Positions 4,344 to 32,569 of a stretch of 32,569 nt of DNA are shown one piece after another. The translations under genes and the position numbers were made by a program. Location: positions 1-32,569 of the forward strand of contig JAFUCM010000188.1 in NCBI GenBank assembly GCA_017459675.1, given 5' to 3'. Source of the DNA: Eubacterium sp. (GTDB lineage Bacteria > Bacillota > Clostridia > Lachnospirales > Lachnospiraceae). Numbering within the stretch: the first letter of the stretch is position 1; each line of letters starts with the position of its first letter. The notes under the pieces are model-generated. The model was not told the DNA's origin. It did no database searches and saw nothing but the letters and a program-made list of their open reading frames with translations.

Positions 4344-4374
4344 TCACCGCAGGCGGAACCACGTGATTCCGTCT
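4282..4374 (-). repeat. Three tandem 31-bp degenerate repeats covering the 3' end of the DUF5711 gene
   Basis: The core CACCGCAGGCG recurs at 4283, 4314 and 4345, exactly 31 bp apart. The unit at 4344-4374 encodes the last residues and stop of the DUF5711 protein. On the minus strand the copies read TGGTTCCGCCTGCGGTGA, GGAATGCGCCTGCGGTGG and TGGATCCGCCTGCGGTGA. Two of the three copies therefore keep a W-x-R-L-R-stop reading. The copies have no unique spacers, so this is not a CRISPR. Confidence 0.75.
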
Positions 4375-5906
4375 TCATCTGCCGCGACATACGTCTTGGT
4401 ATCGACAGAAAACAGCTGCCTGGTATGTTCTTCATAACTGCCGCGGTATTTCTCTGTCCCGTCAAGTCCGAAAACGCACATCTCATTTCTGTTATAGAAA
4501 CTGATCTGATTTCCGGAGAACTCCACGGTCTCAAACATGAAATCCATCGGTTTGCGCGCCAGTTCCCTGCCATTTAGATCATACACATTTATAATGAAAG
4601 GTTTTTCATCTGTGCCGGCATTTCCCGCGCCGTCCGCAGACTTTCCGGATCCTCCGGCATTTCCCGTTCCGCCCGCAGAATTTCCGGCTTTGCCGGCTGT
4701 CTCCGCCCCCGCCGAATCTGCTGCGGCATTTTCCTCAACAGCTGCATCGGATGCGCCGCCGGATTCTTCCCAGGCCGCCTCATCATCGTCCGCATTGTTA
4801 TCGAGCACCAGCCCGATGTACCGGTCACTGTAGAAGACACTCTCGATCTCTTCATTTACCTTGACTTCCTGCTTCTTTTCAGGAACGGTATCGCCTTCAA
4901 AGATCACAAATCCATTATCACGGAATGCGACTGCCGTCGTACCGCTCAGGTACTCAATTTCCGGCACCAGAATGTCCTCCATCTCAAACTGACCGACCCG
5001 GTTGTCCATCTGATTCTGTCCGATGTCATCAAAATTGTAGAAACGGATCAGACTCTTCATGGTGTTATCAGCATAGGAAAGATAAGAAACCGCCAGAAGC
5101 ATGCCGTCTTCGGAAAGCGCGATGTCCATCGGGTAGCCCGGTTCGTTGATGGATGTCTTAATCGACGCAATCTCTTCGCCGTTCGTCTTGTAGTAACGCA
5201 GGAAATTGCTGTTGCTTCCGGTATCTCCGAGCAGCGCTGCAACCGTGCCCGAAGACGAGACATCTGCCCGGACAATCGGCATATCCGTGCTGATCGTTCC
5301 AAGTTCCCCCGTCTCATTGCAGATCACAATGGTAGATCCGTCACTGTCAAATACCGCTGCCGTTGTTCCGCTGACGGAAACCTTCGGTGCATCCATCCGG
5401 TAATTGATTTCCCAGATCATGTTCTGGCTGCGGCTGATCAGCGAGGCGCCGTCCGTTCCGTACCGCAGAACATTTCCCCCGAGGCTGCAGTACTCGCTGG
5501 AAATCGCATTATCCACCGTCTGCTCCGCGACCACCTTGTAAGAATGATACGCCCAGTGCCGCACAATGGTCATACCGATCAGAACAGCTGCAATAACAGC
5601 TGCCGCAATGATTCCCCAGACCACAAGTCTCTGCCGGTAGGGCGCCAGAAAATGAAAGTACCGCAGAATTCCCGGCTTTCTGCTGCCTGATTCTGCCTGC
5701 GCCGAAGGCTCCTCCGGCTGTACATCCTCTGCTGCCGCGCCATTTGCAGCCGCATCATTTGCAGCCGTACGCCGGGCAGACCGGCCTGACGGCTGAACGG
5801 ATCTGCTTTTCTGCCTGCTGCCCGACGCCTTCTCTTGCTCCGCAATCACTTCCTCCGGCGGGATGATCTCAATATTCAGTTCATCTTCATCTCTGTATTT
5901 TGCCAT
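4344..5906 (-). CDS. DUF5711 family membrane-anchored beta-propeller-like protein
   Basis: 520 residues, function unknown. A charged, Ala/Ser-rich cytoplasmic N-terminus (1-90) is followed by one membrane segment at about 94-115. A large extracytoplasmic domain follows with repeated short beta motifs (for example VSVSGTTAAVFDSDGSTIVI and GYPMDIALSEDGMLLAVSY), as in WD40/PQQ-like propellers. I recognise it as DUF5711, known from Lachnospiraceae. A low-complexity Gly/Ala/Asp/Glu/Ser linker at about 371-434 interrupts the propeller and looks inserted. The last codons lie inside a 31-bp tandem repeat. The start has only a weak Shine-Dalgarno and sits about 25 nt after a long hairpin (5931-6062). 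Confidence 0.85.
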   Translation of the reverse strand: MAKYRDEDELNIEIIPPEEVIAEQEKASGSRQKSRSVQPSGRSARRTAANDAAANGAAAEDVQPEEPSAQAESGSRKPGILRYFHFLAPYRQRLVVWGIIAAAVIAAVLIGMTIVRHWAYHSYKVVAEQTVDNAISSEYCSLGGNVLRYGTDGASLISRSQNMIWEINYRMDAPKVSVSGTTAAVFDSDGSTIVICNETGELGTISTDMPIVRADVSSSGTVAALLGDTGSNSNFLRYYKTNGEEIASIKTSINEPGYPMDIALSEDGMLLAVSYLSYADNTMKSLIRFYNFDDIGQNQMDNRVGQFEMEDILVPEIEYLSGTTAVAFRDNGFVIFEGDTVPEKKQEVKVNEEIESVFYSDRYIGLVLDNNADDDEAAWEESGGASDAAVEENAAADSAGAETAGKAGNSAGGTGNAGGSGKSADGAGNAGTDEKPFIINVYDLNGRELARKPMDFMFETVEFSGNQISFYNRNEMCVFGLDGTEKYRGSYEEHTRQLFSVDTKTYVAADEDGITWFRLR

Positions 5907-5930
5907 ACTATATTCTTATCTCGCTAAATC

Positions 5931-6062
5931 GGGGTTTGTCGGGGTAATTGTTTTCTTAAATACGCGTCCGTTCACATGATGCCATTTTCTAAAGCAGCGA
6001 ATTCTACCTGAGCTGCGTAGAAAACGGCATTCTGATAAACAGGCGCGTACTCGACAAACCCC
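5931..6062 (-). repeat. 132-nt stepped hairpin with conserved 13-nt loop (copy 1), between recR and DUF5711
   Basis: The outer arms 5931-5941 and 6052-6062 pair perfectly (11 bp). Inner blocks 5961-5966/6044-6049 (TACGCG), 5979-5991/6018-6030 (one mismatch) and 5994-5998/6012-6016 (GCAGC/GCTGC) continue the stem. A 19-nt one-sided bulge lies at 5942-5960. The loop 5999-6011 is GAATTCTACCTGA. A hairpin at 8958-9018 has a different stem but the same loop except for one base. Confidence 0.8.
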
Positions 6063-6066
6063 ATTT

Positions 6067-6663
6067 TCACAGATCCACGCGGCCTTCCAGGGCGCGCAGC
6101 AATGTCACTTCGTCGATGTACTCGAGGTCCCCGCCGACAGGAACGCCGCTGGCGATGCGGCTCACGCGGATTCCGGTGGGCTTCACCAGCTTGCTGATGT
6201 ACATGGCGGTTGTCTCGCCCTCCAGGCTGGAATTGGTGGCAATGATCACTTCGTCCACATCACCTTCCAGGCGGCGCATCAGTTCTTTGAGCCGGATTTC
6301 ATCCGGTCCGATCCCGAGCATCGGGGAGATCGCTCCCTGCAGCACGTGGTAGACACCGTCAAATTTCTGTGTCTTCTCATAAGCAGCGAGATCACGTGAA
6401 TTTTCCACAACCATGATCTGCCTGTGGTTCCGGTTCGGATTGGCGCAGATCGGGCAGATTTCCTGATCGGTCAGTGTGCAGCAGGAACTGCAGTAACGCA
6501 CGTTATCCCTGGCATCCTTCAGGACGTCCGCGAGACGGTGCACCTGATCCTGCGGCATATTTAAGATGTGAAATGCAAGCCGCTGCGCCGACTTCGGTCC
6601 GATCCCCGGAAGCCTTCCGAGTTCTTCGATCAGACCGTTGATATGACTGCTGTAATATTCCAT
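6067..6663 (-). CDS. recR: Recombination mediator protein RecR
   Basis: 198 residues, the usual RecR length. An N-terminal helix-hairpin-helix region (GRLPGIGPKSAQRLAFH, 16-32) is followed by a zinc finger with Cys58, Cys61, Cys70 and Cys73, then a Toprim domain (IMVVENSRDLAAYE). With RecF and RecO it loads RecA on gapped single-stranded DNA. Its ATG overlaps the TGA of ybaB (ATGA), so the two are translationally coupled. It ends the dnaX-ybaB-recR operon, and a long hairpin (5931-6062) lies just downstream. Confidence 0.98.
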   Translation of the reverse strand: MEYYSSHINGLIEELGRLPGIGPKSAQRLAFHILNMPQDQVHRLADVLKDARDNVRYCSSCCTLTDQEICPICANPNRNHRQIMVVENSRDLAAYEKTQKFDGVYHVLQGAISPMLGIGPDEIRLKELMRRLEGDVDEVIIATNSSLEGETTAMYISKLVKPTGIRVSRIASGVPVGGDLEYIDEVTLLRALEGRVDL

Positions 6664-7013
6664 CAGAAAGGAAGACCTCCCAGTCCCATTCCGCCGGCCA
6701 TCTTGCTCATGCTGCTGGAATAAGCCTCTTCGACTTTGCGAAGTGCCTCATTTGCAGCGACCATGATCAGATCCTCCAGCATCTCGATGTCATCCGGATC
6801 GACAACTTCTTCCGCGAGTTTGATCTTTGTGATCTCACGTTTTCCGGTGACTGTCACCTCGACCGCACCGCCGCCTGCTGTCGCTGAAAACTCGGATTCC
6901 TCCAGCGCCTTCTGGCTCTCTTCCATCTGGCGCTGCATCCGCTGTGCCTGCTTCATCAGATTGTTCATGTTGCCGGGCATTCCGCCGCCCGGAAATCCGC
7001 CTCTTTTTGCCAT
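6663..7013 (-). CDS. YbaB/EbfC family nucleoid-associated protein
   Basis: 116 residues. The Gly- and Met-rich N-terminus (GGFPGGGMPGNMNNLMKQAQ) precedes the YbaB fold (ATAGGGAVEVTVTGKREITKIKLAEEVVDPDDIEMLEDL), and a Gly-rich tail ends in GGLPF. Family members are small dimers that bind DNA and are encoded between dnaX and recR in most bacteria, as here. AAGGAG is correctly spaced before the start. The stop overlaps the recR start. Confidence 0.96.
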   Translation of the reverse strand: MAKRGGFPGGGMPGNMNNLMKQAQRMQRQMEESQKALEESEFSATAGGGAVEVTVTGKREITKIKLAEEVVDPDDIEMLEDLIMVAANEALRKVEEAYSSSMSKMAGGMGLGGLPF

Positions 7014-7050
7014 TGTTTTTCTCCTTCTTTACTGTATTTAACATTATATT

Positions 7051-8820
7051 TTAAAAGAAATCATCCTCCGGCCCGTCATCTTCTTCGGTTTCAATCGGCA
7101 TGTTGATCCGCTGCTGCAGTTCTTCTTCCGAGAGAATCTCTGCAAAATGACTTCTTCCGCCTGCTGTCTCGCATACCGGTTCGAAGGCCGCCTGTTTTCC
7201 GATAACCGTCTGGATCGCTTTCTGCAGCTCCTCCCGGTGCTCGCTGTTGTCCGGCGTATCCTCAAAAAAGAGTTTTGCATTTGGATCCGTAAAGCACAGG
7301 AACAGCTTTGATTCATCCGCAGCCGGATCGTATTTCGGCACCGCCATGCTCAGAAATCCTCTGACAAGTCCGCCGGTCTGGCCGACGATTCTCCGCCAGT
7401 TTTCACGGATCCGCTTCAGATCCTCCGGCGCCGCACGCGGCGGTTTCGGCGCTGTAGCATTTCCGCCCGGAAATACACCTGCTCCGCTGCGTCCTGCAGC
7501 ACCGGTGCCTGCCATACTCCCGGCTCCGTCTGCCCCATACATCCCGCTGCCCGGTCCGCCGGCAATTCCGCCCATCCCGGCGATACCATTTCCCCGGGCC
7601 GCCAGAACCGCACCGGGATTTGCGGCGAGTGTGTGCAAAAATTCACTTTCTTCCGCTGTAAAATTCGCCGTCTCCGCCTGTTTTTCCAGATTCCGGATGC
7701 GCTGCAGAATCGCCTCGCGGTTTGTGTTCATCTCCGGCCTGCAGAGACGGATCAGCGTCGTCTCAACCAGCACGCGCCGCTGCGTCACCTGCCGCAGTGT
7801 TCCGGAAAGTTCCGAGAGGACACGGATATACCGCATCAGTGCGGCCGGTTCAATCATCTCACTCTCTTCACGCAGCTGTGCAAGGTTCTCCGTAGAAACA
7901 TCCAGCACATCCTCAAGTTCCGAATCACTCTGCAGCAGCATCAGGTTGCGCAGATACCAGGTGAAATCGCTGACAAACTGCCCCATCTCCTTGCCCTGCT
8001 GCACCAGTTCTTCCAGAATCCGGATGCTGCCCGCCGCATCACGCGCGATAATCATGCGCAGCAGCCGGCTGAATACATCCGTATCGATCGTGCCGAGCAC
8101 ATTGAGGACGCGGTCAAATGTCAGTTTCTCGCCCAGATGAAACGCAATACACTGGTCCAGCAGACTCAGTGCGTCTCGCATGGAGCCGTCCGCCTTGCGC
8201 GCGATGTAGCGGATTGCCCGCGGTTCACTCTCGATCTTCTCCTGCTCCAGGAGGCTTTTGATCTGATCCGCAATTGTCTCGACTGCGATCCGCCGGAAAT
8301 CATACCGCTGGCATCTCGAGAGAATCGTAACCGGAATCTTATTTGCTTCCGTCGTCGCCAGAATAAACATCACATATTCGGGCGGTTCCTCCAGCGTCTT
8401 CAGAAGTGCATTGAAGGCACCTGTCGAGAGCATGTGGACCTCGTCAATAATATAAACCTTGAAGCGGCCTGATGTCGGCCGGTAGGCCACTTCCTCACGA
8501 ATCTCGCGGATATTATCCACACCGTTATTGGAAGCCGCATCGATCTCAATCACATTGGTCGATGTCCCGTTCAGAATCGCCTGACAGGTACTGCATGCAT
8601 TGCACGGTCCGTTCTCCGTCGGGTGCTCGCAGTTCACGGCGCGCGCAAGAATCTTCGCGATCGTTGTCTTGCCGGTTCCCCGCGTCCCGCAGAACAGATA
8701 GGCATGCCCGATCCGGTCCGCTTTCAGCTGGTTCTTTAAAGTTGTAACAATCGCATCCTGCCCCCGCACCTCATCAAACCGCTGCGGGCGGAATTTGCGA
8801 TACAGAGCCGTATAGCCCAT
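7051..8820 (-). CDS. dnaX: DNA polymerase III subunits gamma/tau
   Basis: 589 residues. This is the clamp-loader ATPase of the replicative polymerase. Walker A GTRGTGKT is at 45-52, the zinc site uses Cys64, Cys73, Cys76 and Cys79, and the Walker B region IIDEVH is at about 124-129. The SRC sensor (ILSRCQRYDFRR) and the domain III region QRRVLVETTLIRLCRPE follow. A 60-residue Gly/Ala/Met-rich linker (about 403-462) joins the ATPase to a tau-type C-terminal domain. I see no A-rich slippery site that would give a programmed frameshift to gamma. AGGAG precedes the start. It is the first gene of dnaX-ybaB-recR. Confidence 0.97.
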   Translation of the reverse strand: MGYTALYRKFRPQRFDEVRGQDAIVTTLKNQLKADRIGHAYLFCGTRGTGKTTIAKILARAVNCEHPTENGPCNACSTCQAILNGTSTNVIEIDAASNNGVDNIREIREEVAYRPTSGRFKVYIIDEVHMLSTGAFNALLKTLEEPPEYVMFILATTEANKIPVTILSRCQRYDFRRIAVETIADQIKSLLEQEKIESEPRAIRYIARKADGSMRDALSLLDQCIAFHLGEKLTFDRVLNVLGTIDTDVFSRLLRMIIARDAAGSIRILEELVQQGKEMGQFVSDFTWYLRNLMLLQSDSELEDVLDVSTENLAQLREESEMIEPAALMRYIRVLSELSGTLRQVTQRRVLVETTLIRLCRPEMNTNREAILQRIRNLEKQAETANFTAEESEFLHTLAANPGAVLAARGNGIAGMGGIAGGPGSGMYGADGAGSMAGTGAAGRSGAGVFPGGNATAPKPPRAAPEDLKRIRENWRRIVGQTGGLVRGFLSMAVPKYDPAADESKLFLCFTDPNAKLFFEDTPDNSEHREELQKAIQTVIGKQAAFEPVCETAGGRSHFAEILSEEELQQRINMPIETEEDDGPEDDFF

Positions 8821-8894
8821 AGTTCCGCTCCTGAAGTTCTGCGTAATTCTTCTGTCACATCAGTGATTTTTGCATAGGTATCCAGTATCATCCG

Positions 8895-8923
8895 ATTATA
8901 CAATGAATGCGGAATCTCCGCAA
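8895..8923 (-). promoter_or_regulatory. dnaX promoter with palindrome over the -35 and spacer
   Basis: On the minus strand, -35 TTGCGG (8918-8923), a 17-nt spacer and -10 TATAAT (8895-8900). A perfect palindrome TGCGGA-N3-TCCGCA (8908-8922) covers the -35 and part of the spacer and could be a repressor site. Confidence 0.65.
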
Positions 8924-8957
8924 GCACTGCAGGAGACAGGAGAATTCCAACAAAGCA

Positions 8958-9018
8958 AGAGACGGATATATGTTTCCCGGCGAATTCCACCTGAGCCGGG
9001 AAACATATATCCGTCTCT
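8958..9018 (-). repeat. Perfect 24-bp hairpin with conserved 13-nt loop (copy 2), between pfkA and dnaX
   Basis: The arms 8958-8981 and 8995-9018 are perfectly complementary over 24 bp. The loop 8982-8994 is GAATTCCACCTGA, matching the loop of the 5931-6062 hairpin at 12 of 13 bases although the stems are unrelated. It lies 44 nt after the pfkA stop. No U-run follows, so it is not a canonical intrinsic terminator. Confidence 0.88.
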
Positions 9019-12555: not shown

Positions 12556-12826
12556 AAAAAAAGTCGCGCGCCTCACCTTGAACCTCCGACCAGGACGTTA
12601 CTCCTGCAGTTAACTCAGCCCAGGCACCCTCACGGCACACGAAAGATTCCACTTAGTGCTGCTGCATTCCTGCCCTGACACGGTTCATGGAGTTCCGTTG
12701 CGCGAGACCCAGACGTCAACGCCACTTACAGAAGGCAGCTCCCATTCGAAAGGCCCTCAGATCGGCATCACCCCTGCTGTAGCGGATTGCAGGTACAGGG
12801 CACCGCTATCTCCCCGGCTGCGCGAC
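12556..12826 (-). ncRNA. ffs: Signal recognition particle RNA, large bacterial type with Alu domain
   Basis: The minus strand reads about 271 nt of SRP RNA. The 5' part has the Alu-domain region (GCCGGGGAGATAGCGGTGCC, then CTGTACCTGCAATCCGCT). The S domain has the Ffh-binding motif GTGTCAGGGCAGG-AATGCAGCAGCAC. The 5' GTCGCGC pairs with the 3' GCGCGCGAC to close the molecule, and seven U residues (12556-12562) end it. The ends are inferred from the promoter and the U-run. It forms SRP with Ffh to target membrane and secreted proteins. The Alu-bearing form is typical of Bacillus and Clostridia. Confidence 0.95.
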
Positions 12827-32183: not shown

Positions 32184-32255
32184 CTCCCCGAGTAGGGTTT
32201 GAACCTACGACCCTTCGGTTAACAGCCGAATGCTCTACCGCTGAGCTATCGAGGA
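32184..32255 (-). tRNA. tRNA-Asn (anticodon GTT)
   Basis: 72 nt on the minus strand. The acceptor stem TCCTCGA pairs with TCGGGGA, the D-loop region is AGCTCAGCGGTAGAGC, the anticodon loop CTGTTAA gives GTT, and the T arm is GTAGGTTCAAACCCTAC. No encoded CCA. It is the last gene of the rRNA transcript. Confidence 0.96.
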
Positions 32256-32312
32256 TTATTATGATGCCATGCACCTTCAAAACTACATATACAAAATCAT
32301 CGAAGTTCTTTT

Positions 32313-32569
<257 letters not shown>

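What the first reader, a model, noticed from the sequence alone, without database searches (positions are those of the whole stretch)
5931..9018. Two hairpins with unrelated stems share the same 13-nt loop, GAATTCYACCTGA
Hairpin 1 (5931-6062) lies behind recR and hairpin 2 (8958-9018) behind pfkA. Their stems differ completely, and hairpin 2 is a perfect 24-bp stem. Yet the loops 5999-6011 and 8982-8994 match at 12 of 13 bases and both are closed by C-G. A conserved loop on variable, self-complementary stems is the pattern of selection on loop identity plus stem structure. Both sit at operon 3' ends and neither has a U-run. This could be a protein-bound 3' element, a new family of REP-like or transposable palindromes, or an RNA kissing motif.
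Basis: seen in the sequence. Interest (0 to 1): 0.75.

Follow-up and report, generated by a model that had tools for sequence, protein, structure and literature searches.

The report
Gene-end hairpins sharing one loop
More than a hundred hairpins in three related bacterial genomes carry the same 13-base loop on stems that change sequence yet stay paired, mostly behind genes, where they likely mark or protect the ends of messenger RNAs through a still unknown factor that would read the loop.

Summary
The window's genome holds 127 places within 3 mismatches of GCGAATTCCACCTGAGC (reversed-pattern control: 3); relatives matching Lachnospiraceae bacterium FE2018 and Eubacterium sp. RGIG2458 hold 15 and 40 exact GAATTCNACCTGA; two other genomes of the genus hold none. 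In 37 gap-free copies, 21 of 22 stem pairs change on both sides and 92.3% of cells pair. In 44 orthologous pairs, 132 compensated stem changes stand against 52 uncompensated; the loop differs at 0.096 per site, the stem at 0.345. Convergent gene pairs hold 24 copies, divergent ones 1. Mismatch asymmetry and U-runs point to the strand reading UCAGGURGAAUUC. Best reading: a 3'-end RNA hairpin whose loop is read by an unidentified factor. Only 21 of 132 have a U-run, so classical termination covers a minority. Type A (hairpin 1) looks recently mobile; type B (hairpin 2) is often kept at orthologous sites. REP tags and a REP transposase were sought and not found. Main rival: palindromes recognised as single-stranded DNA.

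The parts
5926..6066 (-). hairpin 1, type A element: outer inverted repeat 5926-5941/6052-6066, 13-bp stem 5979-5991/6018-6030, AA x G irregularity 5992-5993/6017, closing stem 5994-5998/6012-6016
   Evidence: sequence; fold; absent at the orthologous recR site in G001 and G002
5999..6011 (-). conserved loop, reads TCAGGTAGAATTC on the transcript strand
8958..9018 (-). hairpin 2, type B: perfect 24-bp stem 8958-8981/8995-9018, 44 bases behind the pfkA stop codon
   Evidence: the orthologous site in G002 has the loop on a different paired stem, G001 an ordinary terminator
8982..8994 (-). conserved loop, reads TCAGGTGGAATTC on the transcript strand
8942..8954 (-). likely remnant of a second loop unit downstream of hairpin 2 on the transcript strand (GAATTCCAACAAA on +)
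   Evidence: 3-mismatch match, a level at which chance matches are common in this window; similar second units follow other copies
6067..6663 (-). recR, gene ending into hairpin 1
   Evidence: TIGR00615
9063..10142 (-). phosphofructokinase gene ending into hairpin 2
   Evidence: NF002872

Best explanation
These hairpins, mostly behind genes, share a nearly fixed 13-base loop on stems that change in step, and they likely work as RNA: the UCAGGURGAAUUC loop would be read by an unidentified factor that fixes or protects the mRNA 3' end. Shown: the copies, the near-invariant loop, the covarying stems, the persistence of many type B copies at orthologous sites, the position behind genes and the near-absence from divergent spaces. 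Inferred: that RNA rather than DNA is the working form, that a trans-acting factor binds the loop, and that the outcome is termination where a U-run follows and 3'-end definition or protection elsewhere. Type A copies such as hairpin 1 are inferred to be a recently mobile carrier of the same apical hairpin; type B copies such as hairpin 2 are the resident form.
For: Loop: 131 strong hairpins, all within 4 mismatches although 6 were allowed. Stems: covariation score 0.73 against 0.19 shuffled and at most 0.18 slid; 132 compensated against 52 uncompensated changes at orthologous sites. Retention in a random sample of G000 copies: type B at 8 of 11 located sites in G002 and 6 of 11 in G001, type A at 2 of 11 and 0 of 11. 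Position: 65 tandem copies with a gene ending into the hairpin on the UCAGGURGAAUUC strand against 24 in the other orientation; convergent 24, divergent 1. Strand: isolated A-C 54 against G-T 28 on the GAATTC strand, i.e. G-U favoured on the mRNA strand; 36 v 16 where a gene ends into the hairpin, 10 v 8 in the other tandem orientation. U-run: TTTT in 21 of 132 on the mRNA strand against 29 of 824 background windows, 9 of 132 on the other strand.
Against: 111 of 132 copies have no TTTT behind the stem, and a looser definition of stem ends showed no U excess (3 of 137). 24 of 132 copies have the opposite tandem orientation, and some orthologous sites carry the loop flipped. Of 14 loopless 3'-end sites in G001 only 4 have an ordinary terminator that I could recognise (two by scan, two by eye), and 0 of 10 scanned in G002. 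G-T pairs are scarce (28 isolated beside 2653 Watson-Crick), which suits DNA-level pairing or arm copying at least as well. No expression data and no candidate factor.
Confidence: 0.42

Rival explanations
1. Non-autonomous mobile palindromes recognised as folded single-stranded DNA: an IS200/IS605-like or unknown transposase binds the loop and the irregularity 6-7 pairs below it, and copies survive mainly at gene ends.
For: Type A copies are alike (39 of 406 arm pairs at least 90% identical) and mostly missing at orthologous sites. A shared irregularity lies 6-7 pairs below the loop (93% and 80% of type A, 41% and 17% of type B). PF01797 transposases occur in exactly the three carriers of five genomes. 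REP transposases read loop and bulge (PMC8266576, passages). G-T pairs are scarce.
Against: Type B arms are mutually unlike (mean identity 0.35) yet often sit at orthologous sites. No GTAG or CGTC tag (3 and 1 of 132). The five transposases tested of 14 matches are IS200 type, and only 1 of 10 fetched transposase loci holds a loop copy (L153). Strand asymmetries are not expected.
Confidence: 0.27
2. Neutral palindromes kept paired by mutation: template switching at the hairpin copies one arm onto the other, and the stem needs no selection.
For: Compensated changes (132) far exceed half changes (52), with only 12 to G-T; G-T pairs are rare.
Against: It does not explain a loop more conserved than the stems (0.096 v 0.345 per site), the gene-end position, the strand biases, or why other loops are rare (1 of 46 strong 13-nt hairpins in loci that were fetched for the motif). 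It may act together with the best explanation.
Confidence: 0.12
3. A DNA-uptake-type word parked in gene-end hairpins, as in Neisseria and Pasteurellaceae.
For: Dispersed short word associated with gene-end hairpins; the kind is known (PMC1852404, passages).
Against: The word is in the loop, not the stem; 127 places rather than about 1000 or more; of 27 distinct exact copies examined in G000 only L010 lies in no hairpin and L015 has one arm lost.
Confidence: 0.02
4. Chance similarity of two unrelated hairpins.
For: 3-mismatch matches are common in the window (43 found, 31.7 expected).
Against: 31 exact copies against 0 control matches; covariation.
Confidence: 0.005

Closest known systems
REP elements (GTAG- and CGTC-tagged palindromes) and REPINs
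   Same: Dispersed intergenic palindromes, mainly between tandem and convergent genes and downstream of coding regions (PMC3733652, passages); type A sits inside outer inverted repeats, as the halves of a REPIN would (REPIN structure recalled; PMC3116915 seen as listing only).
   Different: No GTAG/CGTC tag, arms about 28 nt to the last G-C pair instead of stems of 6-13 bp, a 13-nt loop instead of 2-4 nt in many REP families, stems free and loop fixed; no REP-type transposase among five tested.
Intrinsic (Rho-independent) terminators
   Same: Hairpin behind the stop codon; 21 of 132 have TTTT on the mRNA strand; a few sites alternate with ordinary terminators between species.
   Different: Most lack a U-run; terminator loops are normally not conserved (recalled).
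Uptake-signal terminators of Neisseria and Pasteurellaceae
   Same: One genome-wide word tied to gene-end hairpins (PMC1852404, passages).
   Different: There the word forms the stem by inverted copies and is present about 1000 times or more; here it is the loop on changing stems.
BOX elements of Streptococcus pneumoniae
   Same: Modular palindromic units in tandem, intergenic (modular make-up recalled; family listed in PMC2267715, passages).
   Different: No sequence relation was tested; a shared apical loop is not a BOX feature that I know of (recalled).

Membership tests
REP element | GTAG or CGTC tag at the foot of the palindrome | tested here: not met
   GTAG 3 and CGTC 1 of 132 feet, background 3 and 9
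REP element | short stem (6-13 bp) and, in many families, a 2-4 nt loop | tested here: not met
   left arm to the last G-C pair: median 28 nt; 13-nt loop
REP element | cognate REP-associated tyrosine transposase in the genome | tested here: inconclusive
   five of 14 PF01797 matches tested: IS200 type, all below the REP_Tyr_transpos cut-off; nine not tested
REP element | located behind genes, rare between divergent genes | tested here: met
   convergent 24, divergent 1, tandem 89 of 132
Intrinsic terminator | stable hairpin shortly behind a stop codon | tested here: met
   median 53.5 bases from loop to the gene that ends into it in the commonest context
Intrinsic terminator | U-run directly behind the stem | tested here: inconclusive
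   TTTT in 21 of 132 v 29 of 824 background; no excess with looser stem ends
MITE | terminal inverted repeats and recent dispersal | tested here: inconclusive
   type A: outer repeats and near-identical copies; type B: 8 of 820 arm pairs at least 90% identical
MITE | target-site duplication | not tested
   no clean empty site was aligned; the recR site in G002 holds another repeat
Uptake-signal terminator | word forms the stem and occurs about 1000 times or more | tested here: not met
   word is the loop; 127 places
Rfam family | match above the gathering score at either hairpin | tested here: not met
   best weak hit at hairpin 2 is mir-1252, 24 bits against 70

The most novel reading that the evidence does not exclude
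A loop-coded class of transcript ends: one genus runs about a hundred gene-end hairpins through a single RNA-binding factor that recognises the UCAGGURGAAUUC apical loop (heptaloop GGURGAA), so that stems drift freely and can even be exchanged between type A and type B at one site while the loop address is kept.
Probability: 0.3. Interest if true: 0.85.

Novelty: new variant of a known kind. Interest (0 to 1): 0.62.

Why it matters
Dispersed bacterial hairpin families are usually defined by their stems, and terminator loops are regarded as free (recalled). Here the stem is free and the loop is fixed across more than a hundred sites in three species. If a factor reads the loop, it would govern mRNA ends across a genome; if a transposase reads it, this is a loop-defined relative of REP elements. 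Both are testable: one carrier matches the genome record of Lachnospiraceae bacterium FE2018.

Tried and rejected
Rejected: chance; a known Rfam family; a tagged REP element; an IS200 element end (of ten fetched transposase loci only L153 holds a loop copy, about 290 bases away); CsrA-type GGA recognition (T at position 7, which removes GGA on the mRNA strand, in 42 of 131 loops; CsrA motif recalled); kissing by GAATTC (broken at position 6 alone in 17 of 131).

Led nowhere: a resemblance of GGTRGAATTC to 16S rRNA (recalled) could not be checked, no 16S being found in G000 or G001. Literature: the loop letters (two papers listed by title and abstract, unrelated, not opened), conserved loop and variable stem (none), REPIN/RAYT/Firmicutes, uptake words and terminators, Lachnospiraceae and palindromes: the listings showed no description of this family; only open-licence PMC papers are held and only the top rows were listed. 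A T-run test with loose stem ends showed no excess (TTTT 3 of 137 on each strand v 29 of 824); the excess appears when the stem is ended at its last G-C pair, a choice I made after seeing the tails. Ordinary terminators at loopless sites were fewer than I expected.

Limits: one search prints a capped list of its 127 places; the distinct copies examined are 96 in G000, 22 in G001 and 45 in G002, collected with GAA and TGA fixed (relaxed). Of these 163, 137 have a stem score of 24 or more and 132 of those both flanks; the 26 without a stem include chance matches inside genes. Loci compared were fetched because they hold the motif, so retention is taken only; two G001 sites there (segments 9, 12) rest on 72-73% identity. 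Gene contexts come from my own simple gene caller. Types A and B come from a simple rule of mine.
Full report
WHAT IS THERE. The two hairpins and loops are as described. Hairpin 2 is a perfect 24-bp stem. Hairpin 1 has a 5-bp closing stem, an AA x G irregularity, 13 more pairs and an outer inverted repeat (5926-5941/6052-6066) directly beside recR's stop codon. RecR, YbaB/EbfC, DnaX and a phosphofructokinase are confirmed by family models.

HOW MANY. The window's genome G000 (2.98 Mb, 220 contigs) has 31 exact GAATTCNACCTGA and none of the reversed pattern, and 127 places within 3 mismatches of GCGAATTCCACCTGAGC against 3. Of the five genomes held for the genus, G001 has 15 exact copies, G002 40, G003 and G004 none; G003 and G004 are smaller and 85-90% complete. 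Of 299 genomes sampled from the family, G000, G001 and one genome with a single match hold the degenerate core (G002 was not in that sample); of 392 sampled from the order only G000 (a stricter core, and G001 and G002 were not listed in that sample).

THE LOOP. Allowing 6 of 13 loop mismatches and asking for a strong stem, 131 hairpins in the three genomes all lie within 4 mismatches of GAATTCCACCTGA; positions 1-4 and 10-13 have at most 3 departures each; positions 5, 6, 7 and 9 vary almost only between C and T (11, 17, 42 and 44 departures) and position 8 departs in 10. Of 46 strong 13-nt-loop hairpins in the G000 loci, whatever their loop, 45 are within 3 mismatches; those loci were fetched for the motif, so this is descriptive.

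THE STEMS. Type A (hairpin 1) ends in ..AAGCRGC/GCYGC.. and sits inside one of two outer inverted repeats, AAATCGGGGTTTG or GGGGACGGTTCTCTGTCTCC. Type B (hairpin 2 and most others) has a weak GTCTC..GAGAC theme and otherwise unlike arms. Mean left-arm identity within G000 is 0.35 for type B and 0.60 for type A. On 37 type B or unassigned copies chosen for at least 17 of 22 paired positions, 92.3% of cells pair, 21 of 22 pairs change on both sides, and the covariation score is 0.73 against 0.19 shuffled and at most 0.18 slid; the choice raises the paired percentage. Without it, 132 copies have a median stem score of 43.5 against 13.5 for arms swapped between copies. An irregularity lies 6-7 pairs below the loop in 93% and 80% of type A and 41% and 17% of type B copies. 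Some type B copies are followed, on the transcript strand, by a short second hairpin or half unit with the same GGTRGAATTC.

ORTHOLOGOUS SITES. For 44 pairs of copies at orthologous sites the loop differs at 0.096 per site, stem positions 6-22 at 0.345 and the flanks at 0.159; shared pair positions: 545 unchanged, 132 compensated, 12 half changes to G-T, 40 broken, 16 unpaired in both. Behind pfkA, G002 has the loop on a different paired stem plus a second hairpin, and G001 an ordinary terminator. Hairpin 1 is absent behind recR in both. At one site (L004, L172, L245) types B, B and A occupy the same place in the three species, and some sites carry the loop flipped in a relative. A random sample of 27 G000 copies (12 B, 12 A, 3 unassigned) was located in the relatives and read (the recR and pfkA sites in part). 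With the strict pattern in the same orientation, type B was found at 8 of 11 located sites in G002 and 6 of 11 in G001, type A at 2 of 11 and 0 of 11, unassigned at 0 of 3 and 0 of 2, and at none of the 9 G004 and 4 G003 sites fetched (weaker matches there were not fetched). By eye, four of the G002 misses (segments 10, 15, 21, 26) hold a degenerate or flipped copy.

POSITION AND STRAND. Of 132 copies, 65 lie in tandem with a gene ending into the hairpin on the UCAGGURGAAUUC strand, 24 in the other tandem orientation, 24 between convergent and 1 between divergent genes; 13 have no gene called on the left, 1 none on the right, and 4 lie inside called genes. Convergent and divergent spaces are about equally many on a chromosome, so 24 v 1 is a strong bias (p 1.5e-6); 65 v 24 gives p 1.6e-5. 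G000 alone: 18 v 0 and 33 v 14; G002: 5 v 0 and 20 v 6; G001: 1 v 1 and 12 v 4. Copies are related, so the p-values are optimistic. Isolated stem mismatches are A-C 54 and G-T 28 on the GAATTC strand (p 0.005), so G-U is favoured on the other strand; 36 v 16 where a gene ends into the hairpin, 10 v 8 in the other tandem orientation. TTTT directly behind the stem on the mRNA strand is found in 21 of 132 against 29 of 824 background windows, and in 9 of 132 on the other strand. With looser stem ends there was no excess.

MECHANISM. I commit to an RNA hairpin at transcript 3' ends whose apical loop is bound by an unidentified factor, giving termination where a U-run is present and likely 3'-end protection or definition elsewhere. 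Shown: the family, the loop, the covariation, the retention, the position. Inferred: RNA as the working form, the factor, the outcome. Difficulties: most copies lack a U-run; of 14 loopless G001 3'-end sites only 4 hold an ordinary terminator that I could recognise (segments 11 and 17 by scan, 2 and 5 by eye), 0 of 10 scanned in G002, 1 of 6 in G004 and 2 weak ones of 4 in G003 (shuffled control 7 of 420 per strand); and G-T pairs are scarce, which a DNA-level or mutational account would also give.

RIVALS AND KNOWN KINDS. The best rival is a palindrome recognised as folded single-stranded DNA, as REP and IS200/IS605 transposases do through loop and bulge (PMC8266576, passages). PF01797 proteins occur in exactly the three carriers of five genomes, but the five tested of 14 matches are IS200 type, REP tags are absent and type B is often kept in place. 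REP elements share the gene-end location (PMC3733652, passages). In uptake-signal terminators the word makes the stem (PMC1852404, passages). No Rfam family matches. Searches of the open PMC library listed no description of this family.

VERDICT. A real hairpin family with a conserved loop, found in one genus in the genomes searched; a new variant of the dispersed bacterial hairpin kind, with a testable and possibly novel loop-reading mechanism.

Noticed in passing
L012, L013, L020, L241, L245, L258; G002 recR site in L284: A second dispersed repeat, GGGGACGGTTCTCTGTCTCC, occurs singly and as inverted pairs around some type A hairpins; it sits where hairpin 1 would be in G002.
   Followed up: partly
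L253, L281, L005, L250, L232: Tandem units: further hairpins or half units with GGTRGAATTC directly beside the main type B hairpin, some closed as GCGAAGGTRGAATTCGC.
   Followed up: partly
L323, L324, L325, L328: G001 carries other dispersed repeats at the same intergenic sites (units with GCATCCGCA or GCATGC), so these sites look like hot spots for changing repeat families.
   Followed up: no
L021, L181, L182, L317: Loop hairpins that sit on top of what looks like an ordinary terminator base (A-run, GC stem, loop unit, GC stem, T-run).
   Followed up: partly
loci at contig ends in G000 and G002: Many copies lie near contig ends, so the repeats probably break these assemblies and copy numbers are likely underestimates.
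   Followed up: no
window 12564-12825, 32184-32255, 32312-32569: Large SRP RNA, a tRNA and the 3' end of 23S rRNA.
   Followed up: no
window 4344-5906: A 520-aa open frame downstream of hairpin 1 without any NCBIfam match at 1e-10.
   Followed up: no
loops at 5999-6011 and 8982-8994: GGTRGAATTC resembles a conserved stretch of 16S rRNA (recalled); no 16S was found in G000 or G001 to compare.
   Followed up: partly
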